Assembly (NCBI GenBank): GCA_010094025.1
Contig: ML991771.1
Span: 62,001 to 126,000 of the forward strand
Direction: 5' to 3'
Origin: Viridothelium virens
Taxonomy: Eukaryota; Ascomycota; Dothideomycetes; Trypetheliales; Trypetheliaceae
Length of the DNA stretch: 64,000 nucleotides
Under the pieces are notes generated by a model. That model searched no databases and was not told the DNA's origin. It saw nothing but the letters and a program-made list of their open reading frames with translations. Shown piece by piece: positions 18,637 to 45,705 of this stretch (positions are counted from its first letter, which is position 1; the number at the start of each line of letters is the position of its first letter). A program made the translations under genes and the position numbers.

Positions 18637-19282
18637 GTTGAGCCTCAGGAGTCATACGGCCCGCCGAGGTGATGACTTCTCCTGACGGTTGAGCTGTCGA
18701 TGCTAGATTCGGAGGGTAGCGAAGGGAGATGGAGGATGCGCAGAGCTCCGGTGTCGCGTTCTGCAGGACGAGAAGGAAAGTGAGCGAGCGTGTGCACCAG
18801 CAAAAGTTAGTAAGTTTCAGTACTGTGGGGTATCGCAATTGAAGTGAACGGGGTCCGCTCGGGGGAAGCTGGCGCGGTCTGCCACCCGACTCGGCTGCGC
18901 CTGGACGGTGGCCGTGGTCGGAGGAGAATAAAGAATAGGTAGGTAGAGGACAGCGAGCGGAGATGCAATGGTAGCGTGGAGTTGAGGCAGAGGCCAGCCC
19001 TTCCTCTGACAGCAGCACGAGCGGAGAGGGTAGAGGAAGCCGGGGGATTGCAGGGTTAGGCGGGCGTGTCCTCAGTGCTCAGCAAGCGATGCTGCAAGAG
19101 GGTTGGGAACTGGGACTGGGGACTGGGAGTCTGGTAACACCGGGACTGGGGGGGATAGATGAGTGTACCGAACAGGCAAAGCCCTGGGCCCGGGCGAGTC
19201 TGAAACGAAGACGGTTCTTAGTACAGCAATACGGGCTCGTTCTCGTCTTCTGCTTGGGTCGTGGCCACCCTGGCGTTGGATT

Positions 19283-19306
19283 GTGGGATCGTGGGATCGT
19301 GGGATT
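19283..19306 (+). repeat. 8-bp tandem repeat, three units
   Basis: GTGGGATC occurs twice, followed by GTGGGATT, directly head to tail. A minor microsatellite in the gene-poor region. Confidence 0.8.
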
Positions 19307-22300: not shown

Positions 22301-22352
22301 CGATTCTCCGTTCCAACAGTCCAACGTGCATAAGATCCAGATTTTCGAAAGG

Positions 22353-22360
22353 TATAAATA
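22353..22360 (+). promoter_or_regulatory. TATA box of the first SDR gene
   Basis: TATAAATA lies 92 bp before the start codon at 22452, a normal distance for a fungal TATA promoter. TATA promoters often mark inducible genes. Confidence 0.6.
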
Positions 22361-22451
22361 AGCTTGCTCCCGTTGCATTTTGCTGTGGAGAAGCTATCGA
22401 GTCAAATTGTAATCGGATTAATCAGATAAATTTCAAAGGGTCAAAGTCAGA

Positions 22452-23550
22452 ATGTCTGACAAGCACATCGTACTTATTACTGGTGCGAATACCGGCATTG
22501 GTATTCACCTCTATCCCTACAGCTTTTCATTCCCAAGCTGACGTCTATACAGGTTATGAAGTGGTGAAAGCGCTTGCGTCTTCTTCACATGCGTACCATA
22601 TTCTTGTCGGGTCTCGTTCTATAGACAACGGAGACAAAGCAATTGCCGAGGTGAAGAAAGAGGCACCAAACACGACCAGCACCTTTGCAGTCATTCAAGT
22701 CGATGTCTCAAGCGACGACTCAATTAGAAAAGCCGTTGATCAAGTAAAAGCAAGTCTGGACCGTATTGACACGCTCATCAATAATGCTGGTGCGTCCAAT
22801 TTCTTCTTTCCAGCAGGGTTCCGCCAATCCTCTCAGTATAACCCTTCTATACGTTACTATAGCATAAACCCCTAACTCTTTCCAATCCAATCTTTCCGCA
22901 AAAGAGCAAGGAGCACAAAGAGAACCAGTCGCTTTCACGAAAGATCTTGCGCTTGCCCCCCAAAATTTCCTATCCCCCAACTTACATGACACGCCCCAAA
23001 TGAACCACCGCTCACCCTCTCACCAACAGGCTGGTCTCCCGACCAACAAATCGCCTCCGGCAAGCTCACAACCCGCCAAGCCTGGAACGCGGGCTACGAC
23101 GTCAACGTCTCGGGGACGCAAGTCATGACCGAAACCTTCATGCCGCTACTCCTCGCCTCCACCACAACCCCACGCCTCCTGTTCATCACGTCCGGCCTAT
23201 CCAGCCTCGCCGGCGCCGCCGACCCGAACTCAATGCGCTACACGAACCCGCCTGCGGGCTGGCCGAAGCCGCCCGGCCCCGTCTTCGTTGCGTATCGCAG
23301 TTCGAAGACCGCGCTGAACATGCTGATGCTCGACTGGGCGCGCATCCTGAAGAACGATGGCGTCAAGGTGTGGTCGATTAGCCCGGGGTTCTTGGCGACG
23401 GGGTTGGGCGCGGTGGGCGCGGATGCGTTGAGGTCGATGGGGGCGGGCGAGCCGAGGGTTGGGGGGGAGTTTATTAGGGATGTGGTGGAGGGGAAGAGGG
23501 ATGGGGATGCGGGAAAGGTGATTAATAAGGATGGGTTTCAGCCGTGGTAG
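22452..23550 (+). CDS. Short-chain dehydrogenase/reductase (classical SDR)
   Basis: An NAD(P)-dependent oxidoreductase acting on an alcohol/carbonyl pair; the substrate is unknown. The exons are 22452-22500, 22553-22789 and 23030-23550, giving 268 aa in frame. The second intron is long for this window (240 bp). Motifs: TGANTGIG for cofactor binding (the last Gly is split by intron 1), LINNAG split by intron 2, ITSGLSSLAG containing the catalytic Ser, and YRSSK as YxxxK. It then has the usual SPGFLATGL after strand 6. It resembles fungal cytosolic carbonyl reductases. It is the first gene of the 22.4-40.2 kb metabolic island, and the next SDR follows in the same orientation after 408 bp. Exon 3 is very C-rich, then becomes G-rich near 23380. 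Confidence 0.92.
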
Positions 23551-23958
23551 GAGGGAGGTGGGTCTTGTATATGTATATATCTCCCATTTCGAGAGAGAAA
23601 TTAGGGGGAGAAGGCAGCATTGACCTTGCGTAGTTCAATTATACGCTCGTTATAGTGGAAGAATCTTGTCCGTCGTCCGGATAGTTGCGTCTCTCGAAAT
23701 GTCGAGAACGATGATCGTGGACCAGGGGGCTGGTGCACTCTTGGAATTGTTACGACGTCCATTACTGATTCTTAGATGGACTCTGTTAGATGGCTACCTA
23801 GAATACTTGTCAGTCGTCGAAAGTGCAAGCAAAAGCTACAGGCGGGGATATCGGCAACTTGAGCGTTTCTCGACGTCATGTGCAGAGCAACATAAAACTA
23901 CCTATAACCGCGTGATTTCCAAAAGAGTGATAAATCAGATTCACGTTTGTTTTCCACC
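23551..23958. other. Spacer between the two SDR genes
   Basis: This holds the 3' region of the first SDR, with an ATATGTATATAT tract near 23570, and the promoter of the second. No other feature is seen. Confidence 0.5.
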
Positions 23959-24936
23959 ATGAGCGAGCAACCCACACGTCCGACCCGCTCCCTTTCTGGG
24001 CGCGTCGCCATTGTGACAGGAGCAGGCGCTGCCGGCGATGGGATTGGCAATGGTCGCGCGTCTGCTATTCTGCTGGCCGAAGCGGGTTGTTCTGTCGTTT
24101 GCGTCGACATCAAGTCCGAATTGGCAGAGCGTACAGTGGCGTTGATCGAGGAAGAGGGCAAGGGAAAAGCCATCGCAGTCGCTGGTGACATCACCAAGAC
24201 CGATAACTGCAAGTCCATTGTCGAAACAGCGGTTTCGACTTACGGGAGATTGGATATTTTAATTAATGTTGTGGGAGTGGGAGGAGCTAGAGGAACAGCT
24301 TTAGATGTGGATATGGAGGAATGGGCTAAAGGAATGGAGATTAATGTGAGCACTATGGTGATGATGGCCAAGTATGCAATTCCGGAAATGGTAAAGAACC
24401 ACGGGCAATGGCGAGGGAGTATCGTAAACATGGGAAGTGTGGCGGGCTTGAGAGGAGGCACACCACATCTTCTCTACCCCACTGCCAAAGGGGCGATTGT
24501 GGTAAGTGAACACCTTAATGTGGCAAGCACAATGCATTTCGAAACCTGAGTGTGAAAATGCAGGATGGGCTTTCTATTTCTATGCTGAGTGTCTATCAAA
24601 TTCCTGCTTTGCGTTTCTAATTTTTCGGAGCAGAATATGACACGGGCCATAGCGGCTCATCATGCCCTTGACGGTATTCGAGTGAATTGCGTGTGTCCGG
24701 GCATGGTCTATACGCCCATGATGTATGCTTCCGGCATGACTGAGGAGGCACGAGAGTCTCGAAAGAACCGTAGCCTTCTCAAGACGGAGGGCAATGGCTG
24801 GGATGTGGGTGCCGCCGTCCGATTCTTAGCCGGTGACGAGGCTAGATGGATGACTGGTGTAGTTCTGCCTGTTGACGCTGGAGCAACAGTCGCAGTGGGA
24901 AGTGACCTCCCAAAAACTGCCAGTGTCAATCCGTAG
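23959..24936 (+). CDS. Short-chain dehydrogenase/reductase (FabG-like SDR)
   Basis: A second, not closely similar SDR. The exons are 23959-24501 and 24634-24936, giving 281 aa in frame. Cofactor site: TGAGAAGDGIGNGRA, a longer glycine loop than usual. After it come VCVDIKSE (strand 2; Asp suggests NAD preference), GDITKTDN, and INVVGVGG in place of the usual NNAG. The catalytic part is NMGSVAGLRG with Ser and YPTAKGAIV as YxxxK. The intron falls just after that helix starts, followed by VNCVCPGMVYTPMM. The C-terminal WMTGVVLPVDAGATV closes the fold. The type is seen in dihydrodiol and cyclic-alcohol dehydrogenases as well as FabG-like reductases, so the substrate is open. It is tail to tail with the MFS gene at 24992, only 55 bp apart. 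Confidence 0.92.
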
Positions 24937-24991
24937 ATGGGGGAGCTAGAAGAGATTGCTTAGAATTGTCGATATTTGCTCAAGCGCCTTA

Positions 24992-27091
24992 TCAGTCATC
25001 GACTGGGGCAAATTTAGACATTTTCCGTAGCCGAAGTCCGTATTTCATGAAGATGAGAGGCACAGGTATGGCCAGTGTCGCAAAGGCGCCAAGTATTGAC
25101 ATTGCTGGCCCTACGCCCAAATTGTTGAACATCGCTGCCTCTTTTATTAGCATCGTCACGGGCTCACTCTCTGTTAAAGTAACTTACGCCTAGCGAATAG
25201 GGGGAAAGCTGCAGCCAGAACACTTCGAAGAAATGTATTCGCCGAAACTGCAGAGGCTGCATATAACATATAAGTGTCAACGAGAAAGTTGATACATTGT
25301 TGAAAGATGATATTGAAACCAGCTCCGATGAGTGCTGTGGCAATGACTGGTACCACCCAGTGGATACTTTTGTTGCCACCAGTCCAACCAAACCAAAACA
25401 GTCCCACGGCGAAACTTACAGCGCCAACAATCATAGGCTGAAGACGTGCCTCAGGAACTGGCTTGCCCCCATTAGCGTCCACAATCCTGCTGTACCTTGG
25501 TTGGTTCCCGAGATTGACGACCACTGCAAAGAGAACGCCCACGAAAAGGCCCAAAAAGGGTAAGGTGCTAACGACAAGTGGCCAGGCACGGATGTCTAAG
25601 AAGACGATAGGAAATACTTCCAACGTGAGGTAGACCAAAGCGTAGCAGAAAGAAGCGTATATCGCTATACAGGTGACCATTGGTTCGGTGAACAGCATGC
25701 GTAGAGGGCGGGACAAGTGCTTCGTTACGATGCTTTGAAAATCGAGCTTGATGTCTTCGTGCGGATGGTGCCATGCCGAGTTTCCGGTCTCTTTCCGCAG
25801 GCGTTGCGCTTTCTTTTTGAGGAGAACTGGAGCGTAGACTTCGGGCATGCACAGCAAGGTCAGTGCAAATATCGCAAATACCCAGATTGCGATGATGTAC
25901 TCAGTCCAACGCCAGCCAAGCTTGGGATTGACTACAATGGCGCTGCCGATCACAGGACTAATCTAGTAATGAATCGTTTAGCGATTGATGAGGAATAGAT
26001 GATTGCATGCATGTGGGCAGTCAGAGTAGAGGGAAAATATATGAATGGATCAAACTTCTTTCTCGGTACCATTTTGCAAAGAAAGCCAACGGGCTCCCAG
26101 TCAAAGGTGCCTGTATTGGTGTCTAAGGATGCAGAAGTTGGTTCAATCACTCAACCCTGACGTCCGTTTGCGTATAAGAAAGTGTATGGAGAAGCGATGA
26201 ATGCAAAGCAACACTTACCGTTGGACCTCCAACGACAGCGACAGCGTAGAAAGTAACGGCGGTACCTCGTGCTTTTGGATGGTAGATGTCACCAAGCGCA
26301 GCGCTGACATTGCTGATGGGTGATGAGCCAAATACGCCCCCGAAGAACCTTGTGATTATGATTGAGGCAAAATTCTGACTCGTCGCGGTTCCGATAGAGA
26401 ACAATGCGAGACCGAAGACAGCTGGAATCATACTCCATTTTCTCCCCCATACCTCACTGATGGGTGCCCAACACAAGGGACCAAAAGCAAATCCAAGAAT
26501 GTAGAGAGAAATGGTGAGGATGGTGGCTTCAGCAGAGACCCCGGTGTATGCGCTTATTTGTTGTTCGGCAGGTGATATGATACTGCTCGCACTGGAGCCA
26601 GATAGAGCAAGCATGCCCAGCTGGAATGTTATCCAGGCTTTATAGGTGGTGGACCAATTCTTGGGGTTGTCTGGGTCATTAGGCTCCCAGTCAACGAGGT
26701 AGGCATCTTGGTCCTTAGGCTTGGGAGGTTGAAGGTGGTCTGCCCTCTCGACATCTGAAGAATCAGAGCGGCCTGTTCTCTCGGCGTTTAGGACATTAGA
26801 GCTGCCTGCTTCCTCGACGTCTCGAGCGGGGGAGCGACTTGCTTTTTCGATATCAGAGGGAGACAATTGACCCGCATTCTCAAGGTCAGATGTACGATGT
26901 GAATCAGGAGGTCGAGTATCCGGCGGTGCTTTACGAGAGGAGGAGGATTTCAGTGAGGATTTCGGTGAAGTTGTCGATGAAATTTTGAGGTCAGGCCCCG
27001 GAGCATGTGAAGGCGATGACGAAGGTGTCAGTGCGGCCCGAGTCGGCGAAAAAGAATCCGACGAGGGTCTCGCCGTTGTTTGGGCCATCAT
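24992..27091 (-). CDS. MFS drug:H+ antiporter (DHA1, polyamine/Flu1-like)
   Basis: A predicted plasma-membrane proton antiporter. Exons in transcript order are 26219-27091, 25188-25962 and 24992-25140, giving 598 aa in frame; the first intron is 256 bp. Two ATGs in tandem (27091 and 27088) can start it. A long Ser/Pro-rich cytosolic N-terminus (about 130 residues) contains an irregular repeat of an ER(A/T)GRSD/EKASRS-like unit with acidic spacing. The 12-TM core begins after the family signature DWEPNDPDNPKNWS. Motif A is PISEVWGRKWS and motif C is VVGGPTISPVIGS across intron 1. After TM6 come PEVYAPVLLKKKAQRLRKET, as in Tpo1/Flu1-type carriers, and the end signature PLFARQAAMFNNLGVG. It could export the metabolic island's substrate or product. 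Confidence 0.93.
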
Positions 27092-28276
27092 TGGCGCTAA
27101 GTCAGGTCAGGCTCTCCAAGTTCAGCCTCGTGAAGGCCTGAAGGGGAAGGGGACACACCACATGGCTTCTTGGCAACCGCATGTTAATAAAGATTTCTTA
27201 TGAAGGCCGACACCGCCGAGATGGATGTCCGACCCGTGGCCAAGGCTAGGTCTGTCAATCCATCTGATAATTTACCGACTATCGGCCCACAGCCATGGCC
27301 CATCAACGTTTCCAACGTCATGACTCAATAACAGGCACTGACAGGGTGCACAGCGTGCTTGATCGGATATCCGGCATTGCTTGCGTAGCCGTGCATGCCA
27401 TGTACTCCACCAAAAATGTTGTGACCACCAACCCAAACGAGACCAAGGTCCTCATCTCGTAACATTGTTGCCAGCAGATTGGTAAGATTGGTAAGATCTA
27501 CGGAAGTAAATACCGCTTGCGGTAGCAGACTATCAAAACTTTACTTCTTTCTCTCCGTGGAAGGTCTTACCTTACCCTTTATTCGTGCTGAAGTAATACG
27601 ACGGGCGAAGGCTAAACGGCACGACCTCGCCCTCCACTGAAACAAAGAGTTCCGTCAGTTGCTATTTGTCACAGCATACCCGCTACAAGAATAAGATACT
27701 GAGCATGTGAGCCATCCTTTACGAGACGAGCGAAAAAAAAGGCATGCAACAGCAGGTCAGGAAATATTTCGACGCAAGCTGCAGTCTTTACAGGTGTCCC
27801 CTACCTTTATCGGAAGTCTATAGGTAGCATACCGTACCTGTCTCTGTAGCCTACGGACATGGTGTAAACACGTCCAAACAGGAATCGACTTAGAAATATG
27901 TCCAGGCGGCATGCCAGCCTCATTGACGGCTCTACCGAGTCTCCCGAATCTCTTTTGCTATCTTGGTTGAGATTTGGGAGAACAATAAATTGACATCAAC
28001 CAGGGGACGCCTTCTACTGCAGTTGTTCCGGGATACATGAGAGAGAAATTGTAATGCCGGAGATAGACTACCTTTGGAGAGGATGGAGAGAATGAGGAAA
28101 TGCTAGATGTTGCGAATATGGTCTTCTCGCTCCTCATATATCCTCGGCTACCTGCCAGACCTGAGGAGCACAGCTAGTCACAGACGGATAGGGCATGGAC
28201 AAGGAGCTTCATCGATTGACCTTCAATTCATGCTCTCAGTCATTAACGAAAGCTCAAAATAACTCAGATATTAATT
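27092..28276. other. Intergenic, no gene seen
   Basis: 1.2 kb lie upstream of the DHA1 gene and downstream of the next MFS gene, both on the minus strand. I find no coding frame. A short direct repeat, attggtaagattggtaag, lies near 27478-27496. Confidence 0.5.
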
Positions 28277-30379
28277 CTAGTGCGTCTGATTTGGATCCTT
28301 GATCGTGCTGCGGTGCAATCTCGCAAGCCAAGACCGGGAAAAGGAAGTGCGGATCCTCTTGCCCGCAAACATGAAAATAAGCAAAGCCATGTTATTGACC
28401 AGCAACACAGCGGTGAAGACACCAGCGATGACGGTTGCGTATCCGTCCTTCAAAACCCAATCCAGGAGCTCGAACCCCATGCCAAACGAGATGGCTTGCT
28501 TACCGAGATTCATCGCAATAAGCCTAGGAGCATGGTCAGTCGGGATAGATGCAGATAGAGATGGAGTAGGAAAGACCAACATTTCGGAGAGATTGGCGTT
28601 ATAGCTGTCTACCGAGTAGGCGAGCGTGAAAGAAAAGTAGAAATACGCTGTCACCCAAGCTGGTTAGATTTGCACTGTTCATTCATCCAGTAGCTGTACT
28701 TACCACCCCAGTCGACCATTGCGACTCCTGCAAAATAACCTACCCAATGCAGATCTCTCTGCGCAGTCAAGCCATAAACAATTAGCCCCGCAGGACCAAT
28801 CAACATCGCTGGTAACATAACCCCAAGGCGCATCTCAGCCTCCCGGATTCCATTATTCTTACGTGTGAGATATGCTGCCAGCCGGTCCGAAGAAGGCATG
28901 AACCTGTACAAATGCTTAGCAATCCCTTCTATTCACGATGGAACCAAAAACTGAATGAAGACGTACGGTATAGCTAGGCCATATCCAATAATATAGGCGA
29001 TCGCGATGAGTCCCGTGTTCGTCTACTACCTGTTAGGCTGACTGGACTACAGATATCCATTTTGTCAACATACCTGGCTCCAAGAGTACGGCGGCTCAAC
29101 AATCTTTAGAGGGAATGTGTAATTGAATGCCAGAGCGCCCAACCCAATATTTATACCGTAACTAGTCACAACCCATAATACGCAAGGAACGAGATAATAG
29201 GAAAACGCCCGAATACTGGTCATGAAGAACGGCACCTCGTAGTTGATGTGGCCCCACGGCTTCAAGGTTTGGATAAAGGACTTCCGCGGAGGGACGTTTT
29301 CGTCAGCAGCAGGAGAAAGTGCAGCCTCTGAATGCTTCATTGCGGTTCCGGATTTCTCGTTATCAGAATCTGGATGAGAAGAGGGCGGCGACTGTGGTAC
29401 TGGACGCGAGCGTTTGTAATCCGTCTCTTCAACAAAAAAGAACGCGAGGACGAGCAGAGCGGCGCCAAAGGCAAACTCCACATAAAAGAAGAGCCTCCAC
29501 GAATAGCCACCAGCGAGCATGTAACCGGCGTAAAGAGGACCTGTGGAGCCGAGGCAGAGGCAGACTGTCGATCATCCATTAGTGCCCATCATACGCGTAG
29601 GAGAGATAGAGACCTGCTTGTGTATATCCCAATACGTTTGCCCCTCTCGTGCAAGAAGAAAATGTCGTTTACAAGCTGGACCGGGATTGCTTCGCAGACG
29701 GAACTTCCGAACCCTTGTATCACTCGCGCAGCCATCAGCCCGCTATATGTCGTTGCTTGGGATGACCCTATCAAGCCAGCAATATACTGCAAGCCGTATT
29801 AACAATGCCCGGACTGTCATTTCGTGCCTCATACGCACAGTGAGAAGAGATAACAGCAAGATGGGTCTCCGCCCAAATTTCAGGTACGCCGGAACCAAGA
29901 CCAGTGATCCAAACCCGTATGCAAGATTGGGATAGCTGACCAGCCCGCTGGCGGCTTCGGCGGTAATTTTGAACTCCTCGGCATAAATAGCAATGTACAC
30001 CGATGGGCCAAGCAGGGCGGAGTTGCTGAGGAATGAATAAAGGGAACATATGACTAAGATCATTATTTTCTTGAAGTTTGACCACTTGAAGGAACTGCAG
30101 TCAGCGAAGTCCACAACTGATCAGAACATCTACTTACCTGAAGAGGATCGTTGGGGTCCTCAGCTGGGACAGGAAAAAGCGCCTGGCCATACGCTGTATC
30201 GTCGCCCTCTACGACGTTTATCAATACAGCTTCCCCAACAATGCGATGCAGTTTTGCAGACCTTTGGCTTGGAGGTTGACAGTACCGGGGATATCTCCTT
30301 CATGCGCATGACTGTGGACGAGATGTCTGTGCCGCTCATTGGCATCCAGATGGAGGCCATGAGCAATGTTTGACGCCAT
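28277..30379 (-). CDS. MFS transporter (DHA1/Hol1-like), nine exons
   Basis: Exons in transcript order are 30286-30379, 30138-30229, 29839-30084, 29618-29786, 29074-29564, 28967-29022, 28704-28903, 28581-28647 and 28277-28523. They make 553 aa with every phase closing. The start is ATG 30379 (MASNIAHGLHLD). The longer frame upstream has only GTG. The pre-TM signature VPAEDPNDPLQWSNFKK is typical. TM1-TM4 hold SGLVSYPNLAYGFGS and KFGRRPILL (motif A). FVEETDYKR precedes a disordered Ser/Pro-rich loop, and the second half begins near LKPWGHINYEVPFFMTSIR. Exon 4 needs a GC donor (29617-29616) to join in frame with exon 5. The intron density is much higher than in the two other island transporters. 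Substrate unknown. Confidence 0.87.
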
Positions 30380-30993
30380 GATGCGGTTGAGAACAAAATC
30401 GATCTCAAGTTCGCTCAGGGTCGTTTCAGACACCAGCTCGGTATATAAGAAAACGTCTGATACCGTTAAGGACGATGCATGTCAGAGGTCTGGCCATTGG
30501 TTCTTTGGTCTGCATTCTGCTTTCTTCTCGGCAGGTCAATCCTAGTCCCGCGTGGATAATCTCGACGCGTGCTGCGGGGCTAAAGTTAACTAGCTGGGGC
30601 TGATAGTTCTCCCCATGGGGTCTTGATTTGCAGACGACAAGGATCACCGTCAGACCCCGCGCAGTCTAGGCAGCCTAGCTATCGGTAGTTCTAGTTCAGT
30701 CCAATGCCGGATGAAATCAGCTTTCTTCTGGGGTAGAACACGAGAATTTATTAAGATATTCGATCATGTGTAGGATACACAGGTGGCAGATATTCCGTAC
30801 ACAATATAGAATTCAGTCAATATCAAGAAGTATCACACTCACGAGCTGATATTGTTCCAGCCGAAATATCGGACGGTCATCGGTGAAAGAAGAGCGAGTA
30901 ATATGATACGGCAGAGTCCGGCTACCACATCCTGTACAAAGATTGCAATGGTAGTTTTCACGAAGTCGTGATGCTGATGCTGATAATGAGTCT
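30380..30993. other. Upstream region of the MFS gene
   Basis: This is the spacer between the BVMO 3' end and the MFS start, both on the minus strand. It contains a TATA-like element (separate entry) and no other gene. Confidence 0.5.
30442..30448 (-). promoter_or_regulatory. TATA-like element of the MFS gene
   Basis: TTATATA on the minus strand lies about 63 bp before ATG 30379. The spacing is plausible for a fungal TATA box. Confidence 0.5.
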
Positions 30994-33045
30994 TCATTCA
31001 ACACGGTGGTCTATTCCCTCACGGAAGCCTCCTTGCACCTCGGTGGAATCCATTTGCCCACATAGATAGCTTTCCGGCGCCCGGAGAAGTTCGTCTGGCT
31101 TGGTCAAGTAAAAGGATAGGTCATTCTTACCACCATTCTCATCATCGTCTGCCTCCAGCTGGGTCGAGCCATTGCCCAGAAAATTCCACATGTTCCTCGA
31201 GTGATGAACATACTCATAGTCTTCGTAACGAGGTTCGCTGATAGTTTCGTAATAATGCAGCGAAGATCCGGGCCAGATACCGATGACCTTTCCCTCAGCG
31301 CGACCTCCTTTGTACCATGATCGGCAGTTGTCAGAAAAGACCATGCGTTGTAAGAATTGTTGGTGACGTATGTTAAGCTGATAGGTCACGGAGCGCCTTA
31401 CACACACTGCTCTGAGATGAGTTAGCTTTGCGATTCTTTGTCAGACGTGAAGTTATGCCTGTCATACTTGATATGCTCACGCTGCATTTTTTGAACCATC
31501 TTCAACATATAGTCACATTGCTTTTCGAGGACAGGAATTAACGTTCCGTTGGAGATTGGAGCGTTGGGGCCGTTGAACACTGAACGATGGTAAGCTGGAA
31601 ATGTTCACCAGGGTGCTGAACGGCATACTAAAGTAATTTGGGAAATCGGGTATCGCCACAGCAAGATAGGCTTCGATATCGTTTGTGTCAGCCCACAACT
31701 CTGAAAGGGGCGCCTGCTGCCGGCCCACAAGCTTGAATCGCGGTTTGTATGTGGTGTCGAACCCTGTCGCGCAGACGATGGCGTCGACTTCATGCAGTTT
31801 TCCGTCGGCAGTCACCAGACTTTTCTCTTCAATACGCTCGATCTCGTCCTTTACGACTGTCACATTCTCCTTGATGAGACTTTCTAGGAAGTTTTGGCCC
31901 GGAGTCAATCTTCTGCACCCAACCCCCCATTTAGGTGTAAGAAGTTCAGAGAGTTCTTCATTGCCTCCTAGACGACTCTTCATCATCTTTGCAAACTCCT
32001 CGAGTGCTCCTTTTTGCTTTTCGCTTCCCTTCATGAACGTACCAAAAGTTCGATTCATATCGGACTCGATGGATTTGCGATAAGCGAGGAAGTAATCCGG
32101 ATCTTCGCGAAACTTCTTCTTATCCTCGTCCGTATAGAAAAAGTTTAAGGGACCCTCGGTCTTTGGGTCGACAAACCCCTGAGAAGGGGCTATCCAGGTT
32201 GGTGATCGGATGAAGGCGCTGAGATGTTGAGCTATTCTTTGCAATTCGGGCACGATTTGGATGGCGGAAGAACCGGAGCCGATGATTGCTACCTTCTTTC
32301 CATAGAAATCGTAATCTCTATCCCATCTGGCAGAGTGACATAGATGTCCCTTGAAGTCATTCAGACCGGGGATGATTGGCCATTTCCAATTGTTGAGCAA
32401 ACCGCAAGCATTAATTAAAACAGCACAATCTCTTTTGAAGATCGTCGTATGTTGAGGATTCTCGGGCGTGCTGACCTCAAACTCGAGCTCCCAAACACCT
32501 CGATACTCGTTCCAAATGGCACTGTTAAGCTTATGGTGATACCTAATGTACTTTCCCAATGCATGCTTTTTTGCCACCGCTTTAAGGTAGTTGTGGATTT
32601 CCACGGAGCCAATGTAATATCTTGAGCTTCCAATTTTTTAGCATCAATGGACGGGTTATAGTTCTTTGTCCAGACTTACTAGTCTGGATTCGGCTCGAAC
32701 GTGTAGGCGTATGCATGAGCTGGCACGTCGCCTGCAAAGATGGTTCAGAAAACGAAATTGACGAAAAAAACAAAATGAGAACCCACAAGCGCAGCCAGGG
32801 TATCTATTTTCCAACCAAGTTCCGCCAAGATCTCCATTCTTTTCATAGATATCAAAATTGCAATTCGGCATGGATTCTTGCACTTTCATGGCAGCCGCCA
32901 AACCCGAAACACCAGCTCCGATACATACCACATCGATTTCGCGTTTGGTATTTAGCGGTTCTTCTCGGATCACATCTTCTAACGTGTTCTCGCTGCTGGA
33001 CCAGCCGTTGGTGTGAGCAAAAGCTTCCTCCGCATGGGGTGCCAT
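30994..33045 (-). CDS. Type I Baeyer-Villiger monooxygenase (FAD/NADPH)
   Basis: Predicted to insert one oxygen atom from O2 next to a carbonyl, turning a ketone into an ester or lactone. Exons in transcript order are 32787-33045, 32680-32731, 31629-32626, 31468-31579 and 30994-31411, giving 612 aa in frame. The start is ATG 33045 (MAPHAEEAFAHTNGW); the longer frame begins with TTG. Motifs: FAD Rossmann CIGAGVSGLAAA, then GGTWLENRYPGCACD (the usual GGTW..N.YPG..CD). The BVMO fingerprint is FKGHLCHSARWD (FxGxxxHxxxW-D). The NADPH Rossmann is VAIIGSGSSAIQIVP, followed by ATGFDTTYKP and FNGPNAPISNG. The C-terminal half has SDNCRSWYKGG. All catalytic signatures are intact. It sits centrally in the metabolic island, with no esterase next to it. 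Confidence 0.94.
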
Positions 33046-34738
33046 TAAGATTGGTAGGGCACTGATCAAATTGCGGATAAGTGATCTTTCAATGGTCTAC
33101 CGGTAAGCGAGAATAAGATAGATGAAGTACTCAGCCACCGAGCATTTGTAGTATCTCGGATGGATGGCCTTGGCCGCCTCATAGTGGAGAACTCCACCCG
33201 AAGCTAAAGTGATCGTCATAGATAGCTGGGGTATCAGAGGTTTGCCGAGCCTGTCAGTCTGGGTCCTCCTGGTGGGCTGGTGGGCTGAGGGATGACTGTG
33301 ACCTCAATTGCCGGCAGTGGGGTATTAACGCAGGTACGCCAGTTTTGCCTGTAACATGATTAGCACAGTGTTTGCATAATCTATACCATGTATTGGCATT
33401 AGCCATGCAGGGGATGCACCAACAGTAAATATCGAATCTTGAACCTTCATCTTGTCAAACTCCACCTTGAGACAACATGCTATCTTTCACGCACTGAGCG
33501 TTGGCACGGCTGGTTAGATAGTAAGAAAAACCTTAAGAGGGTTGAAGTTAAAATAGCGAAAGTGGGGTTGCTGCTGGGGTCATCCGAAAATTGGAGAACT
33601 ACAATTTCTTAACAGCCAGACAATGTCCACCTCGAAGCCTCGTCCTTTCAGTGTATTTCTGAGACACGGTTGGATGATTTGTACGGTTTGTCTTTCACGA
33701 GTGTAATCACTAGCGATGGGGCTCATTGCACAGCGCTATCCTGGCGCCTCTCAGACGAGAGAATTCGCTATCAGTCAGGCTGCATGGAATAGTTTAGAAC
33801 CAAAGGATGCGGCTGTTGCAGCGGTTTAGCTCATTCACAACCTTTTCGAGATAACGGAGTCCTGCAGCTCAGCAGTACTGATAGCAAATGAGATGCCTAG
33901 GAAGTTTTGACCAGAATGAAGTCTGATGAGCGTAGAAAAAGACTCTGGGGAAGACTGTGCTCCAAGTCCCAACTTTTTCGAGGCAGCACTGCTCGATCCA
34001 GAGATCCATCTCAAGAAATGCGCAGATCTATTTCTCTCGACAACGCGCAGCCTCACCTAGGAGACGGCTTTCCATTGTAGCGTCCAGCCTGACTGCGAGA
34101 GAGCATGCATTTTAGTTCTGCATACCATAGTATTGTTTTGAGAAGTCCGTATTGCTAACGCTTACCCACAGCAGATGAGCTACCCTTTTTTGGCATTGGG
34201 GGTTGGCAAAGACTGCCACCGATGCTCTGTGCAATGCCATTGTTGTTGATTCTCCAGTCTGTCATACTAATTGTCTTTTGGTGGGATCAACGGTACCCTC
34301 GCTGATCGTTGTTGCTGGGAGGGTGGAGAAGTGCAAAGTAGCGACTTGGGACATCGTTTGAAGCAGGAGTGCTGTGGAATTTTACGGGAATATACGCCCT
34401 GGGACGCTACGTGAAATAGAGAGGATTGGACGGCAAAAAAATAGCAAGTACCAAGATAGAGGGTTCGGAAGCTGTTTGCACGACAACGAGTCGACGATAA
34501 ACCATCTTGTCCATACCATAGATGTACGTATACGTCACTTGACATGAGTCGGTACAGGTAGGTTTACCGGAAACGCCGAGACTTTGGAGATGTAGCAGGT
34601 GGAAAGGAGTTGAAGTGGCTCTGCCCTGCTAGCAGACAACAACACCACCGAATTTCGTTTAGATTCAGCTCCTGCGCAACCATGCGGATCTTTGGAACAC
34701 CCAAATATCATCCTTTGCCATTTAGGCGGAATGATGTG
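33046..34738. other. Intergenic, no gene seen
   Basis: 1.7 kb lie between the BVMO start and the 3' end of the class II aldolase gene. The first part must hold the BVMO promoter. Small frames at 33835-34056 and 34267-34545 (-) lack motifs and coding bias. Confidence 0.5.
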
Positions 34739-35681
34739 CTAGATGACGAGGTTTACATACATACCTTGCGCCTCCACTTCCCTTACCCACAATCTCCATG
34801 GCCTGTGCGCACTCCAAAGCGTCATCTCCATAGCTCCCTCCGTCTCCTCTTCGCTCAGCACGGCCAGTCCGCCGGCGACCTCCGATCTCTTCAGTCCATC
34901 ATCCTTCGCAGCGACACCATTACTCCCACCAAGATAGGCACTTCTCGTGAGTAAGGCCGTGGTCTGGATCTCGGCATTCTTCTGGGTGTAGATCGCCCGC
35001 AAAACACAATCCTCAATCGTCTTCGCACACACACTATATCCGTGACCTCTCATCAGCACGACAGAATTGGGCGGCTCGCCATCCCGGCCTTTTGCGATTT
35101 TCTCATCCCCTGTATCCTCAAATGACTCCGCCAAAGATGCACCAAGGCGCGTGTCCCTTACCAGCATATCCCTCCTATCTCCCTCCTTATATAGCTTTCC
35201 AATATCCCAGATTGGCGTCCTGGTCCCCAGAAAACCCGCCATATGATAGCATGGCTGGATCGGCACGCCCGACACCGAGTACGGAACCACAGCTTCAGAA
35301 TGACTGTGGATGACAGCATGCACGCCTGGGTACCTCTTGTAGGTTTCGGAATGGATGCAGCGCTCGGAGTAGCCGGGAGGCGAGGAAGGGTCGACGGGAG
35401 AGGCGTCCGAAACGTGGTAGACGACGAGATCGAGGGGCGAGGAGATGGTGCCTGGGGCAATGTAACGCGACATTATGAAGGTAGTGGGATCATGGGGGTG
35501 CCGCACAGAGAGGTGGCCATAGGCGTCGAGGACACTGGTGGAAGACAGAGCATTAGGTTTGAGGTTGAACTACTTGGGAGCTAAAGGAACCCTACCGTTG
35601 GTAATGAAGAATATGGCATCCTGAGATGAAGGTTCGTTGGATATGCTTAAGCAAGAGTTCATCTGATTTGGTAGTAGACAT
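34739..35681 (-). CDS. Class II aldolase/adducin-family enzyme
   Basis: A zinc-dependent aldolase-fold enzyme; family members cleave sugar phosphates or decarboxylate and hydrate related acids. Exons are 35596-35681 and 34739-35534, giving 293 aa in frame. The start is MSTTKSDELLLKHIQ. Fold signatures: YGHLSVRHP near the start, SRYIAPG, then HSHSEAVVPYS with two metal ligands, LRAIY, and LMRGHGYSVCAKTIED with the third His. A helical tail follows. The substrate is open, since fungal members of this family sit in many clusters. It is transcribed divergently from the MFS gene at 36598 across a 916-bp shared region, which would suit co-regulation. A second paralogue lies at 49410-50414. Confidence 0.9.
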
Positions 35682-36597
35682 TGGGGAAAAATAAGTGAAA
35701 GCAACTAGCTTTGGATGAAAGAATGATGAGGCTTTCCAGCCTTAGAATGTCTTGCAGTGCGGTCCTTCGGAGCCATCTTCCGCGAGCCGCGCATTGCTGT
35801 CGTCTGATTGTCCATTGCTTTTCTGTCTTGATCACTCCTCTAAGCGGTCATCTGCGAATGAGGGGTAGAGGGGTGGCACAGGTAAGGTAGGTAGAGAGGG
35901 AGTCAAGGTCGGCAACATGCTCGGCTTAGTTGCTGCATCTCAACCTGGGATGATACCACCAATACGCAATCCTGCAACCAAGATCGGCACGCCGTTATGC
36001 ACGGATCTTGGGCATCTGTAAGAAGCGGGTCATCTAAGCCCCTTTCATCGTAATAAAACCTTTCCTTGCGATATTAAATACCGCCAGCGGGCATCCTCCT
36101 TGTACCTCCGTCAGCTAGCTACCTATCTCCTAGATAAAAAGAAGGGGCTTAGGACTTGAAATCACTCGAAACACGTCCCTATCCTTCTTTCATTCATAAT
36201 TCAGGACTATCTTTTATCATCTGATAGTTTAGGTCAAATGAAGCAGGATAAAGGAGAACAGTAGGTACTTCAATAACGAAGCGGTATACCTATGTTGTAA
36301 CTTGCCAGAAAGGTTAAGTGATGCGCGCCATACAGGCTAGTGGTATGGTCCTTACAGGCCTCCCCCGCACTTGGCTCATTGAGGGAACTCTAGCCATTGT
36401 AGGCTTGCTTCCTTATGCGGACGGACTTCACCTAATAATATGGTCATGGAGGACGCCGAGGCGGTCGGACCGCTGAACTGCTTCGTAAGATTGGTACATG
36501 ATACATAATCATCGTCACTCCGTACGTATATCTCCTTAGTGCCCTTCCCCAATACCTTTCTCATGGTCTTCTTCTCACTAGGTAGTCTTGAACCATA
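35682..36597. promoter_or_regulatory. Divergent intergenic region, aldolase/MFS
   Basis: 916 bp lie between the two start codons. It is AT-rich with several short GTAGGTA-type words (35884-35892) and a pyrimidine-rich leader (36540-36590) before the MFS start. No gene is seen. If the island has a pathway-specific regulator, this is a likely target. Confidence 0.45.
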
Positions 36598-38347
36598 ATG
36601 GCCGTCTTAGAAGACGACAATGGTGAAAAGGAGCTCAAGTCCTTGCCCAGTCACGACCTTGAGCAACCTTTAAAACTCGATCGACATGGTCTCCCCCTTG
36701 TGCCTCAGCCCACTGACCATCCCTCCGACCCCCTAAATTGGCCTTATTACCGAAAGGCTTACATTGCCCTTCTTGTTTCTCTCTTCTCCTTCACTTCTCA
36801 GTTAACCTCAGCGCTCCCTAATCCAGCCTTCAATGTCATAGCTGCTAGTCTAGGGATCAGCGTAACAAGAGCAAGCTACATTACCACCGTATGGATCCTT
36901 TTCGGTGGAGTTACGCCCATGTTCTTGGTTCCCTTGGCAAATGTCTACGGAAGACGGCCATTGTATGTTTTCGGTGCATTGGTCTCGGCGGTATCCGGTG
37001 TGGGATGCGCAAGGGCGACCACTTATGCAGGTTTGATAACTGGAAGGGTATTCAACGGTATTGCAAGTAGCATTGCATTGGGCTTTGGAGCGGCGACCAT
37101 CTGTGATTTGTTTCCGCAGGGTGAGAGAGGCCTGTGGATTGGGATCTACGCTGTTTCGTACGAACACCCATTCGCCGTCGATGCCTCAGTACGTTGTCCA
37201 GAAGCTAATTTGATCCGAACAGGACTACGAACGGACCTCATGTAAGTCCAATCGCTGGCGGTTATATCACTGAAAATTTAAGTTGGAGGTGGACTTTGTG
37301 GATCCCAGCAATCATCCAAGGGTGCCTGTGGCTTCTCGTCCTCTTCACGCTTCCTGAGACTCTTTTCTCCCGCTCCGACTTCAGCAGGCTGGAGAATGAA
37401 CGGAGCTATCTCAGAAGGATGTTCTTCCCAGGAAAAGTCCTCGATCGCCCGATTCGGGTTCGAGATTTCTTCACTGCATTGCGGATGGTGAAATATGCTG
37501 CAGTGCTTTTGCCTTGCATTTACTATATGACCGCAAATACATACGGCTCGACGTTGTTTGCTGTTACTGGCTCCCATATCACCAAGGCCGTTTACAACTT
37601 CAACCCTGGCCAAACTGGTCTGTTCATGGGGGTTCCCCTTACAATCGGCTGTCTGATTGGCGAACTCTTTTCTGGTTGGATTTCCGATCTGCTCATTAAC
37701 GCATATGCCAAACGCCACGGGAGCTATCGAAAGCCTGAGGTACGGCTATGGCTGCTACCGTGGACGATTCTCTTACCCATCGGAACCGCAACTTACGGCT
37801 ATTGCATTCAGCACAAGAAGCCTTGGATCGACTCGGCCATCACTATGGCTGTATCGGGCCTAGGGACCCAAGTTGGGACGACTCTCGTCTACACGTACTG
37901 CACGGATAGCTATAAGCCGCAGAGTGGAGAGATTGGCGCGATCCTCAACCTTTTCAAGTCTAGTAAGTTGCTCTTGACATATCCCTTCCATTCGGGCACT
38001 GCTTGATGCATTGGAGGAAAAGAAGAGATCACACTGGTTCCGATGAAGATTTTGTAGCCACTATTCGTTCGATCTCTATCCATCTTTCGAGAGGTGGTTT
38101 TATTGGCTTTTTTGACCAGTTACACCTTGACCGGCAAAGAACAACGTGCTGACATTGGAGGATAGCCTTTGCCTTTACAATCGGTTTCTATGCCCTGCCA
38201 TTTAGCGAGAAATCTGGTTACGACGTTGCATTCGCTATTCTGGCTATGATTAATGTGGTTGCAATCTTTCCCCTTGTTTTTATGCTCTTTAATGGAAAGC
38301 GAACAAGAGAAAGACAAGGTCTGCCAAAGGAGCACCAGGATCTGTAA
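36598..38347 (+). CDS. MFS transporter (DHA1-like)
   Basis: The third transporter of the island. The exons are 36598-37157, 37223-37962 and 38166-38347, giving 493 aa in frame; the last intron is 203 bp. The pre-TM signature HPSDPLNWPYYRKAYI is followed by TM1 and motif A VPLANVYGRRPLYVFG. TM4 is GRVFNGIASSIALGFGAATI. The join after YAVS gives TTNGPHVSPIAGGYI, motif C-like. TM7 onwards begins near RPIRVRDFFTALRMVKYAAV. The C-terminal exon encodes TFAFTIGFYALPFSEK and NVVAIFPLVFMLFNGKR. All 12 segments appear present. The substrate is unknown, but the position beside the aldolase and the Zn2Cys6 gene ties it to the island. Confidence 0.92.
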
Positions 38348-38992
38348 GATATCAAGAATAAAATGTTGTTCCGTTGAAGGCTTTCCGAGGTATTCCAATG
38401 ATGTAGCTCTCACGACAAGAAGCTTTAGGTACTGCAGAGCGTATTTTTCAATAATCCGGTGGTATCGACCTATATTCCGCACTATTCTGCATGGATTCTC
38501 ATCCTCGAGAGGGCTCTGACTTCAAATCACCTCCGACGCTCAGATCTTATGATCACATCCGGGTCGTGACAAAAAATATGTGCAATTGTTTCGCAGTGTT
38601 ACAACTGGAGGACTCGATGCCTTGATTGTTCGAGCTGCACCGCTCGCCATAGCTTGGACACTTTGACGGGAGCTAGTTCAGTGGAGTATCCCCCAGCCTC
38701 ACATGAATCTCAGTCAGCACCTAGCCTTGAGATTGGTTTGATGTTGCAGACTAATTATAGGGAGTCCTGCGATTCAAATCGAGACTATACATAGTCACAA
38801 ACTAGTCAGTGAGGTTTTCCGATGCAGTCGCGGTCGGTGATGAAATCACTGGTAGAGTAATCGCCTCGATAGATCACTTGAGTACGGTGTGGCGGGCTTG
38901 CAAGCCAACAGTATTAACACTGTAAGTTCGAAAGCTTGGTACCGGACCGGCTAACCATCGTCGCCAACGCATCCGGATAAAGATAGAGTTCG
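38348..38992. other. Intergenic between convergent genes
   Basis: This separates the MFS gene (+) from the Zn2Cys6 gene (-). A B-box-like word (gattcaaatc) near 38771 is not part of a tRNA. I see no gene. Confidence 0.5.
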
Positions 38993-40173
38993 TCAGTCTT
39001 CGCCTGAGATCGTAGATAATGGCCAAGCTAAATGAGGTAACCAGTAATCATCAAGACAGCGAAGGCATTCATCGAACAACGTCCGGGACCAATTCCGCAT
39101 GTACCAAACAGAGTCATCATTCATCTTCTCAAGAATGATACAGAAGTGTGCGAAGATGAAAACAGCATCGGCTCTGCGTTGGGCGAGCAGAGCAAAAAAA
39201 ATCCAAGGGTATTCTTGCGAGGGCTGCTGTGAAGACAGCTTTCGTAGTAGCAGTCCGATCTCCATTAGCCTCATGGGCGAAGAGGTGGCGTAATATTTGG
39301 AGTACTTCCTCATAAGTATCCAAATTCGTATTCTCACTCACTGATCCATTTATTAGGCTTGTAACTCTCTCCAAGTTCTCTTTATAGGGGCTCTCAACGT
39401 TATCTGAAACACCGTTCCAGCAGTCACTCGCGGTACAACTCATGGGTCCTCTTCGAAGTATTTGAGAGTGCGAGTCTCTGATCGAGTACGCTCCTCTAAT
39501 GAGCATTAACCAGTCCGTTTGAGCCGAACTATCTAAAATAGGGGAGAGGAGAAGACGTTGCGGACGTTTCTCGCACGCTAAGGCATATTTGGCAAGCAGT
39601 TGAGAGCTTCCATATAACGCATGGCAGTTTGTCTCATCCATGAATTGTAAGTTAGCACGAAACAGCGGCAAAGCTGCGCTGTAGTGATGGCGTGCAAGGG
39701 TGGAATAGACCGTGTTTTCGTTTGGCTTCAAATATGCTAGATGTAGAGATGAAACAGCCAAAATGAGGTGTCTGATTGAAGGAGTTAGCATCAAGGAAAT
39801 GAAAAGTAAGCGCGGAGCAAACGCACAGAAGGTACGGTTTGGCAAAGCCTTCTATTGGCAATTTGTCGCGCATCATAACCCTGAGGTCGTCAGTGCCACC
39901 GATGGTGAAAGCTGTGGCGCTCGTCCAATGATGGAGCAGCTCCATATCGCGAGTACTAAAACGAATGGTGCTTCGATCCAAGTAGTCAGCTGGAGAGAAG
40001 ACCGGATAACTTGGAAGTACGTGGTGATAGATGCATTTGCGGCCGACCAAAGAGCAGTTTGAGCATGCCGGGCGTACTTCATCGCATTTGACTCGACGTC
40101 TCTTGCACGTCTCGCAGCCAGTGCGAACCTTGTGATGAGGTACTATCTTCCTTTTGCCGCTATCGCCAGCCAT
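38993..40173 (-). CDS. Zn2Cys6 transcription factor (UPC2/sterol-uptake-like)
   Basis: A nuclear DNA-binding regulator, probably of the surrounding island. Exon 1 is 39827-40173, starting MAGDSGKRKIVPHHK, with the zinc cluster GCETCKRRRVKCDEVRPACS, then NCSLVGRKC. It joins in frame to an exon starting at 39771 (HLILAVSSLHLAYL, a family signature). The C-terminal regulatory domain continues to VFTAALARIPLDFF. From there the conserved end (FIFAHFCIILEKMNDDSVWY and onward to HLAWPL) lies in a different frame. The switch falls at an A8 tract (39194-39201 on the + strand). A 67-nt gtactc...gaaag intron upstream would also restore the frame but would remove conserved-looking sequence. It is either a one-base assembly error in a homopolymer or a true lesion. 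Confidence 0.8.
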
Positions 40174-44790: not shown

Positions 44791-45705
44791 ATGCAAAAGA
44801 TTGCCATACTTGGAGCCAGTGGCTCTCTCGGCCGTGCGGTTCTCAACGGTCTACTATCCGCGGGCTTCACTGTGACAGCACTCCTTCGAGAGTCCTCACA
44901 ATCCAAAATTGAGCACCACTCAAATCTGTCCATACTCAGAATACCAGACTCGATCATAGAGTGTCCTATCGATGATCTTGTCAAGGCTGTATCTGGCCAG
45001 GAGGCCCTCGTTATTACTATCGCTGGCAGTCAGGTTCGCGAACAAATGCGACTGGCAGATGCCTGCGAAAGTGCTGGCGTAACACGCATTATTCCTGCTG
45101 ACTTCGGGAGTTGTGACAGTGATGATCAAGCAACGGTGGACATTCTGCCTCTCTATTCCGCAAAATACAAAGTCCGTGCCTACCTCCAGGACTTGGCCGA
45201 GAAGCCAGGCTCCAAGCTCACCTGGACGAGTATTATCGGTGGTCACTTCCTGGATCTAGGTTTACAGGGCGATTTGTTGCTATTCAACGTCAAAGGGAGA
45301 AAGGTAGACCTCTTGAACGGAGGCAACATCAGGTTCTCAACTAGCACAATTGATAGATATGGGCTTGCTGTCGCCAGGATCTTACAAAGGCCTGAAGAGA
45401 CTAAGAATAAGATTATCTATGTTCAAAGCGCTTGTGTCAGTCAGAACGAGCTCCTGGCGAGCTTGAAGCGTGCAACGGGGGAACAACAGTGGTCAGTGAC
45501 TGATCACAAATGGAGAGAGAAATTGGACGGGGCCCGCGAGAAAGCGGATCAAGGCGATAGGGACGCAATTGAGGAGGTAGTTGGCGTATGGGGCATAGTG
45601 GCTAGCAATTGGGAAAAGTCACGACAGCTGTCGAATGGGTTGCTGGGCTTGGAGAACGAAGATGTGGATGAAATCGTGAAGAGAAGTGTCTCTGAAATAG
45701 AGTAA
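44791..45705 (+). CDS. NmrA-like / isoflavone-reductase-like NAD(P)-binding protein
   Basis: A single-exon gene of 304 aa. It is an atypical SDR of the NmrA/phenylcoumaran benzylic ether reductase group, which includes both reductases and redox-sensing regulators. The N-terminal nucleotide site is KIAILGASGSLGRAVL. The family landmarks are TALLRESS after strand 2, then ALVITIAGSQ, and VTRIIPADFGSCDSDD. The active-site Lys is plausible in YSAKYKVRAYLQ, and the substrate-side stretch is WTSIIGGHFLDLGLQ. Fungi have many such genes and the substrate is not evident. It lies outside the metabolic island, about 4.6 kb beyond the regulator, with housekeeping genes on both sides. Confidence 0.9.
   Translation: MQKIAILGASGSLGRAVLNGLLSAGFTVTALLRESSQSKIEHHSNLSILRIPDSIIECPIDDLVKAVSGQEALVITIAGSQVREQMRLADACESAGVTRIIPADFGSCDSDDQATVDILPLYSAKYKVRAYLQDLAEKPGSKLTWTSIIGGHFLDLGLQGDLLLFNVKGRKVDLLNGGNIRFSTSTIDRYGLAVARILQRPEETKNKIIYVQSACVSQNELLASLKRATGEQQWSVTDHKWREKLDGAREKADQGDRDAIEEVVGVWGIVASNWEKSRQLSNGLLGLENEDVDEIVKRSVSEIE

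What the first reader, a model, noticed from the sequence alone, without database searches (positions are those of the whole stretch)
22452..40173. Candidate uncharacterised metabolic island: 2 SDR, 3 MFS, BVMO, class II aldolase, Zn2Cys6 regulator
Eight adjacent genes form a plausible oxidative pathway with transport and its own regulator. Seen: intact motifs for two SDRs, a type I Baeyer-Villiger monooxygenase, an aldolase-family enzyme, three MFS carriers and a Zn2Cys6 protein, with no housekeeping gene between them. Known: BVMOs make esters or lactones from ketones, SDRs can supply the ketone, and class II aldolase-fold enzymes cleave hydroxy-carbonyl products. Inferred: breakdown or detoxification of a cyclic or aryl ketone. 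There is no backbone synthase, and the expected esterase or lactonase is missing, which would have to act from elsewhere.
Basis: partly seen in the sequence, partly recalled or inferred. Interest (0 to 1): 0.7.

Follow-up and report, generated by a model that had tools for sequence, protein, structure and literature searches.

The report
Fungal catabolic gene cluster, substrate unknown
Eight neighbouring genes in a fungus encode enzymes, membrane carriers and a regulator that look like a small pathway for breaking down or detoxifying an unknown compound; the grouping is real, but such clusters are a well-known kind.

Summary
The window lies in a 30.7 Mb genome that reads as an ascomycete fungus. 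[quoted passage not shown] no synthase or housekeeping gene was recognised between them. Of 279 listed genes of these families, 8 fall here in 18 kb; no 18-kb stretch starting outside this locus holds more than 3, and 2000 random placements reached 5 at most.

Corrections: (1) the "aldolase" is nearest, by sequence and predicted fold, to a metal-dependent decarboxylase (M. loti HMPDdc), then by fold to the fungal iron enzyme TqaM; aldol cleavage is one option only. (2) The regulator keeps its zinc finger, but its C-terminal part lies in another frame after a run of eight T. (3) An 11-base word stands upstream of MFS1, BVMO and MFS3 (3 of 12 copies genome-wide), a weak sign of co-regulation (control draws: 25 and 152 of 2000).

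Best reading: an accessory catabolic or detoxification cluster. A cyclic or aryl ketone substrate is plausible, not shown.

The parts
22452..23550 (+). SDR1, 268 aa, 3 exons (introns 22501-22552, 22790-23029)
   Evidence: adh_short 3e-33, TGANTGIG and YRSSK; one solved relative at E<=1e-15 (7xwl 8e-16)
23959..24936 (+). SDR2, 281 aa, 2 exons (intron 24502-24633)
   Evidence: adh_short_C2 3e-55, YPTAK; 58% identity over 83-85% of the query to bacterial plasmid/megaplasmid genes; its two best-scoring own paralogues reach 34-36% over most of the length, short pieces of others up to 49%
24992..27088 (-). MFS1 carrier, 595 aa, 3 exons
   Evidence: MFS_1 2e-33
28277..30379 (-). MFS2 carrier, 568 aa, 8 exons in the model, one GC-AG intron 29565-29617; gene structure less sure
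   Evidence: MFS_1 4e-29; paralogue C56:70586-71842 59% identical over residues 151-563, with one stop inside the match
30994..33045 (-). Type I Baeyer-Villiger monooxygenase, 612 aa, 5 exons
   Evidence: both BVMO motifs and two Rossmann motifs; solved relatives include cyclohexanone, phenylacetone and steroid monooxygenases
34739..35681 (-). Class II aldolase-fold protein (ALD1), 293 aa, 2 exons; nearest known relative a decarboxylase
   Evidence: Aldolase_II 2e-20; 2z7b (HMPDdc) E 5e-28; E, HxH and H conserved in four paralogues
36598..38347 (+). MFS3 carrier, 493 aa, 3 exons
   Evidence: MFS_1 5e-38
38993..40173 (-). Zn2Cys6 regulator with the start of Fungal_trans_2; frame changes at the T run 39194-39201, C-terminal part in another frame
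27483..27493 (+). TAAGATTGGTA, 395 bp upstream of the MFS1 start
33046..33056 (+). TAAGATTGGTA, directly before the BVMO start codon
36486..36496 (+). TAAGATTGGTA in the divergent ALD1/MFS3 promoter, about 100 bp upstream of MFS3

Best explanation
An accessory catabolic or detoxification gene cluster of an ascomycete. MFS carriers move a small organic compound or its products across membranes. The SDRs interconvert its alcohol and ketone forms. The BVMO inserts oxygen next to the ketone to give an ester or lactone. The class II aldolase-fold enzyme removes a carboxyl group or cleaves a C-C bond with a bound metal. The Zn2Cys6 protein switches the genes on. Shown here: the genes, their families, motifs and dense linkage. 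Inferred: all enzymatic steps, their order, the substrate and the regulation.
For: Eight genes of five families in 17.7 kb, the densest such place among the listed genes of this genome. Catalytic motifs present. No PKS- or NRPS-like domain in the 13 ORFs of at least 300 aa in the window. ALD1 nearest to decarboxylase 2z7b by sequence and by predicted fold. Two bacterial relatives of SDR2 lie in gene groups of acid/CoA type. A rare 11-mer is shared upstream of three genes. Published precedent in kind: an Ophiostoma piceae sawdust-induced cluster holds a class II aldolase gene and a Gal4-like factor (PMC3680317, passages); Grosmannia clavigera BVMOs are implicated in terpenoid detoxification (PMC8120277, passages).
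Against: No expression, metabolite or cross-species data. The expected esterase or lactonase is absent. The regulator is out of frame as assembled. The genes point both ways and lie up to 1.7 kb apart. A second class II aldolase (49410-50414) lies outside, beyond housekeeping genes. No second copy of the set was found in the genome places looked at. The shared 11-mer sits at three different distances, once directly at a start codon; shared 11-mers also arose in 25 of 2000 draws from single neighbourhoods and in 152 of 2000 draws from 18 stretches with overlap allowed.
Confidence: 0.6

Rival explanations
1. A chance or neutral gathering of accessory genes: unrelated oxidoreductase and carrier genes piled up in one permissive spot, two or three small units side by side (e.g. 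SDR1+SDR2+MFS1; BVMO+MFS2; the divergent pair ALD1+MFS3) without one pathway.
For: Mixed orientations. MFS2 has a paralogue (59%) on C56; in the 9 kb that could be read 3.6 kb to one side of it I recognise, by eye, a methyltransferase-like gene, an SDR and a photolyase-like gene, not this set; its immediate surroundings could not be fetched. Around the BVMO and aldolase paralogues only partial pairings were seen. Regulator out of frame.
Against: Density beyond random placement and beyond the other places listed in this genome; enzymes, transport and a regulator together are what pathway clusters have.
Confidence: 0.22
2. A tailoring part of a biosynthetic (secondary-metabolite) cluster whose backbone synthase lies elsewhere or was lost; BVMO, SDRs and a decarboxylase or oxygenase would modify a polyketide or terpene, and MFS carriers would export it.
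For: A type I BVMO acts in aflatoxin biosynthesis (MoxY, PMC6315744, passages); the fungal iron enzyme TqaM, of the same fold as ALD1, is second in its fold search and is recalled to act in tryptoquialanine biosynthesis.
Against: No synthase-type domain in the 13 ORFs of at least 300 aa in the window; recognised flanking genes are mostly of housekeeping type.
Confidence: 0.13

Closest known systems
Grosmannia clavigera terpene response: a gene cluster that responds to terpenes, and two detoxifying BVMOs (CMQ_7007, CMQ_6956)
   Same: A fungal gene cluster thought to metabolise a toxic plant compound (PMC3680317), and BVMOs implicated in terpenoid detoxification in the same species (PMC8120277).
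   Different: About 30 genes; whether the two BVMOs lie in that cluster, and whether it holds a class II aldolase, was not seen in the passages read; no sequence comparison was possible.
Ophiostoma piceae sawdust-induced cluster 6 (OPP_01491 to OPP_01495)
   Same: Class II aldolase/adducin gene beside a Gal4-like regulator, induced together on a plant substrate (PMC3680317 Table 4).
   Different: The other listed genes are an N-carbamoyl-amino-acid hydrolase and an isoflavone reductase; no BVMO, SDR or MFS is listed in it.
[quoted passage not shown]
   Same: Best match by sequence (E 5e-28) and by predicted structure; E, HxH and H are kept in the alignment.
   Different: About 30% identity; bacterial vitamin B6 breakdown enzyme; the same substrate is not implied.
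TqaM, fungal non-heme iron enzyme of class II aldolase fold (PDB 9m09, 9n43)
   Same: Same fold; ranks next after 2z7b in the fold search; fungal.
   Different: Only 17-20% identity there; weak by sequence (9n43 E 4e-4).
MoxY and bacterial type I BVMOs (cyclohexanone, phenylacetone monooxygenase)
   Same: Both BVMO motifs and both dinucleotide motifs.
   Different: Substrate pocket not compared; about 33% identity to the eight best plasmid-borne homologues; not compared with the MoxY sequence itself.

Membership tests
Type I Baeyer-Villiger monooxygenase | Single chain with two Rossmann motifs, FxGxxxHxxxW[P/D] and GGxWxxxxYPxxxxD | tested here: met
   motifs, FMO-like, BVMO structures among the top matches; motif wording from PMC6315744 (there WP and YPM, here WD and YPG)
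Type I Baeyer-Villiger monooxygenase | NADPH-dependent conversion of a ketone to an ester or lactone | not testable with these tools
   needs an enzyme assay
Class II aldolase/adducin family (PF00596) | Family profile and metal-site residues (E, HxH, H) | tested here: met
   2e-20; invariant in four paralogues; that the three His bind the metal follows, that the Glu belongs to the site is recalled
HMPDdc-type decarboxylase | Closer to HMPDdc than to FucA, AraD or POD | tested here: met
   2z7b first in both; the model is modest (mean pLDDT 59, 264 of 293 residues)
HMPDdc-type decarboxylase | Mn-dependent decarboxylation of a hydroxy-pyridine dicarboxylate | not testable with these tools
   needs an enzyme assay; the HMPDdc paper was not held
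Pyruvic oxime dioxygenase (POD) | High sequence similarity to AfPOD (E < 1e-60 in PMC11841055) | tested here: not met
   no POD structure among the matches at E<=1e-3; PODs appear only by fold, 13-17% identity, in the 50 rows shown
Short-chain dehydrogenase/reductase | TGxxxGxG and YxxxK | tested here: met
   (SDR2 has an insertion in the first motif)
Fungal Zn2Cys6 transcription factor | Six-cysteine binuclear zinc cluster and an in-frame fungal regulatory domain | tested here: inconclusive
   zinc cluster met; regulatory domain broken by a frame change
Fungal biosynthetic gene cluster | Backbone synthase (PKS, NRPS, terpene synthase, DMATS) in or next to the cluster | tested here: not met
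   13 of 13 ORFs of at least 300 aa in the window scanned with Pfam, two of them as part of MFS1 and BVMO; none is a synthase; a small intron-rich synthase could be missed
Fungal catabolic/detoxification gene cluster | Enzymes, transporter and regulator adjacent beyond chance | tested here: met
   (gene list biased and incomplete)
Fungal catabolic/detoxification gene cluster | Co-induction by a substrate and linkage kept across species | not testable with these tools
   no expression data; no fungal genome collection on hand

The most novel reading that the evidence does not exclude
A so far undescribed fungal degradation route in which Baeyer-Villiger oxidation is paired with an HMPDdc/TqaM-like class II aldolase-fold enzyme that decarboxylates, or oxidatively cleaves, the hydroxy-acid product, driven by a cluster regulator and including an SDR obtained from bacteria.
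Probability: 0.2. Interest if true: 0.55.

Novelty: new member of a known kind. Interest (0 to 1): 0.3.

Why it matters
[quoted passage not shown] This one pairs a BVMO with a decarboxylase-like class II aldolase-fold enzyme. No held paper has the terms class II aldolase, Baeyer-Villiger monooxygenase, gene cluster and fungi together, and none of the 20 of 206 papers listed has class II aldolase beside the BVMO; most subscription papers are not held, so this is not proof of novelty. It gives a short list of genes to test, and could give a role to a fungal class II aldolase/adducin protein.

Tried and rejected
A first automatic gene finder merged neighbouring genes into giant models; it was replaced by single-gene models per region with hand-checked splice sites.

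A 79-bp intron in the regulator that would rescue the frame (chosen automatically) was set aside. In the C15 paralogue both halves match in the same phase of one 372-codon open frame, 231 bases apart; in our gene the same points are 208 bases apart without an intron. In a second paralogue (C1:693k) the halves are in phase too, 276 bases apart against 298 here, but its N-terminal match reads across two stops. An intron is not fully excluded without RNA.

A second copy of the cluster was looked for around BVMO and aldolase paralogues in 17 fetched stretches. Partial echoes only: on C4 a BVMO next to an MFS1-like carrier, with an SDR piece about 3 kb off beyond a CAF17-like gene; on C24 an aldolase paralogue with a Zn2Cys6 gene about 7 kb away, beyond a histidine-kinase gene. 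No duplicate cluster.

Paired CGG/CCG sites typical of Zn2Cys6 proteins: no single spacing stood out in the promoters; this scan had no shuffled control.

Bacterial relatives of ALD1 in genome contigs: 7 loci, only one over most of the length (L052, 34%); its neighbours gave no clear function. Plasmid relatives were more useful.

Genome-wide Pfam searches for MFS and SDR scored few candidates (9 of 392; 19 of 256 and 18 of 214), so protein queries were used for most of the density test.

Literature: (all four terms) found no paper; one search listed one, without class II aldolase; one search listed 20 of 206, none with class II aldolase; searches did not ask for both terms together. The MoxY, POD, O. 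piceae, G. clavigera, C. immunda and plant-defence papers were seen in passages only; the HMPDdc paper was not held.
Full report
Setting. The window is bases 62001-126000 of contig C1 of a 30.7 Mb genome in 175 contigs. Genes carry short GT-AG introns, Zn2Cys6 domains are many (112 matches) and the neighbours include UCH, PI3/PI4-kinase and SNF2 genes, so it reads as an ascomycete fungus. The species was not identified.

Gene models. Stop-to-stop frames, splice-site scoring and hand-checked junctions give: SDR1 + 22452-23550; SDR2 + 23959-24936; MFS1 - 24992-27088; MFS2 - 28277-30379; BVMO - 30994-33045; ALD1 - 34739-35681; MFS3 + 36598-38347; Zn2Cys6 gene - 38993-40173. Pfam confirms every family. 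Catalytic or binding motifs are present in both SDRs, the BVMO, ALD1 and the zinc cluster. MFS2 needs one GC-AG intron and is the least certain model. The gaps between genes are 55 to 1693 bases and hold no stop-to-stop frame above 98 codons lying wholly inside them; four ORFs overlapping gaps had no Pfam match.

Not chance. I listed 279 genes of the five families: 112 Zn2Cys6, 65 SDR (one place, SDR1 added by hand), 80 MFS (further places), 18 BVMO-like, 4 class II aldolase. In 18-kb stretches the locus holds 8 genes of 5 families. Six stretches hold four or more; all six start in this locus, one of them reaching on to ALD2. Elsewhere the maximum is 3. With 2000 uniform placements the maximum was 5 (12 of 2000) and never all five families, four at most (19 of 2000). 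The list is incomplete and leans towards relatives of the cluster's own proteins, which favours this locus; the MFS gene at 7793-9142 is an example of one missed. Real genes are also not placed uniformly.

Surroundings. Left: a gap of about 3.8 kb (18.6-22.4 kb) in which five ORFs gave no Pfam match, then a LIM-domain gene. Right: a SPRY gene, a UCH deubiquitinase, an NmrA-like gene, a PCNA-like gene (recognised by eye), and a second class II aldolase, ALD2, at 49410-50414. None of the 13 ORFs of at least 300 aa in the window matches a synthase.

The class II aldolase-fold protein. ALD1's only strong relative among solved structures is 2z7b (E 5e-28; next 1e-4). PMC11841055 (passages) names 2Z7B as the Mn-dependent decarboxylase HMPDdc and describes Fe-dependent POD on the same fold. 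The predicted structure (264 of 293 residues, three aligned sequences, mean pLDDT 59) again finds 2z7b first, followed by TqaM, AraD, FucA, NovR and POD entries. ALD1, ALD2 and two further paralogues share the expected metal-site residues. A decarboxylase-like or oxygenase-like role is therefore at least as likely as an aldolase one. POD membership is not met.

The BVMO. It has both type I BVMO motifs as worded in PMC6315744 (passages), with YPG in place of YPM and D in place of P in the fingerprint, and cyclohexanone, phenylacetone and steroid monooxygenases among its relatives. The genome holds about 18 BVMO-like genes; the best-scoring paralogue match is 42% identical (C14).

SDR2. Its two best-scoring own paralogues are 34% and 36% identical over most of the length; short pieces of others reach up to 49%. 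Genes on a Roseomonas mucosa plasmid and the Cupriavidus metallidurans megaplasmid reach 58% over 83-85% of the query. Around the latter lie cyclase, SDR, TctC and AMP-binding (CoA ligase) genes; around the former iron-containing alcohol dehydrogenase, CoA transferase and acyl-CoA dehydrogenase genes, and transposases. Only these 2 of 155 matching records were looked at. This hints at catabolism and possibly at transfer from bacteria, but without fungal homologues transfer is not shown.

The regulator. The zinc cluster and the first part of Fungal_trans_2 are in frame. After a run of eight T (39194-39201) a further stretch continues in another frame; Pfam gave no match for it on its own, but it matches C15:164267-164473 and C1:693230-693427 (E 7e-8 and 3e-4), near and in phase with the matches of the N-terminal part (C15:163373-164035, C1:693704-694249, phase). 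The C15 pair lies in one open frame of 372 codons; the N-terminal C1 match reads across two stops. The spacing of the halves (208 and 298 bases here, 231 and 276 there) fits a frame change without an intron. So either the gene is damaged, or a base was miscounted in the assembly; an intron is less likely.

Co-regulation. Among the 11-mers in seven promoter segments, one, TAAGATTGGTA, is shared by three (MFS1, BVMO, ALD1/MFS3); two overlapping 10-mers shared by three were seen where shuffles gave 0.08. The word occurs exactly three times in the window, with two one-mismatch copies outside the cluster, and 12 times in the whole genome, against 6 for the reversed control. Drawing seven non-overlapping segments from single neighbourhoods, seven others of this genome, gave a shared 11-mer in 25 of 2000 draws; drawing from 18 stretches with overlap allowed gave 152 of 2000. 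It contains a reversed CCAAT box (recalled). I take it as weak support.

Echoes elsewhere. A BVMO beside an MFS1-like carrier on C4 and an aldolase paralogue with a Zn2Cys6 gene about 7 kb away on C24 show partial pairings; MFS2 has a 59% paralogue on C56. No second whole cluster was found in the stretches fetched or in the density scan.

Literature. PMC3680317 (passages) lists a sawdust-induced O. piceae cluster with a class II aldolase gene and a Gal4-like factor, and mentions a 30-gene terpene-responsive cluster in G. clavigera. PMC8120277 (passages) lists two G. clavigera BVMOs in terpenoid detoxification and notes that detoxification genes are often clustered, with only individual genes credited. 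PMC5595782 (passages) reports bacterial transfers and clustering of degradation genes in C. immunda. These are precedents in kind, not homology shown here.

Verdict. A genuine and dense, but ordinary kind of, fungal accessory cluster, most likely catabolic or detoxifying. The substrate is unknown, "aldolase" should be read as "class II aldolase-fold, decarboxylase-like", and the regulator may not be intact.

Noticed in passing
window 49410-50414: A second class II aldolase-fold gene (ALD2, 334 aa, single exon, 35-40% identical to ALD1) lies 14 kb right of ALD1, beyond housekeeping genes, with an NmrA-like gene at 44791-45705 nearby.
   Followed up: partly
G000:C138:14760-18287 (L036) and L064 6869-11037: An ALD paralogue lies about 1.3 kb from a thiamine-diphosphate enzyme gene in this fungus; on Agrobacterium plasmid pAt2 a relative sits beside aldehyde dehydrogenase and thiamine-pyrophosphate protein genes. 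The pairing may point to a pathway.
   Followed up: partly
window 39194-39201: Run of eight T at which the Zn2Cys6 regulator changes frame; damaged gene or assembly miscount.
   Followed up: yes
window 23959-24936: SDR2 is 58% identical to bacterial plasmid/megaplasmid genes, against 34-36% for its best-scoring own paralogues: candidate for transfer from bacteria.
   Followed up: partly
window 18640-22440: Stretch of about 3.8 kb without a recognised gene on the left border of the cluster; five ORFs gave no Pfam match.
   Followed up: partly
window 3827-6928: A 1034-codon open frame on + without any Pfam match at 1e-6.
   Followed up: no
window 29565-29617: Probable GC-AG intron in MFS2.
   Followed up: partly
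L062 2037-11656: A Caballeronia relative of ALD1 lies near MFS, PdxA-like, rhamnonate dehydratase and tannase/feruloyl esterase genes.
   Followed up: no
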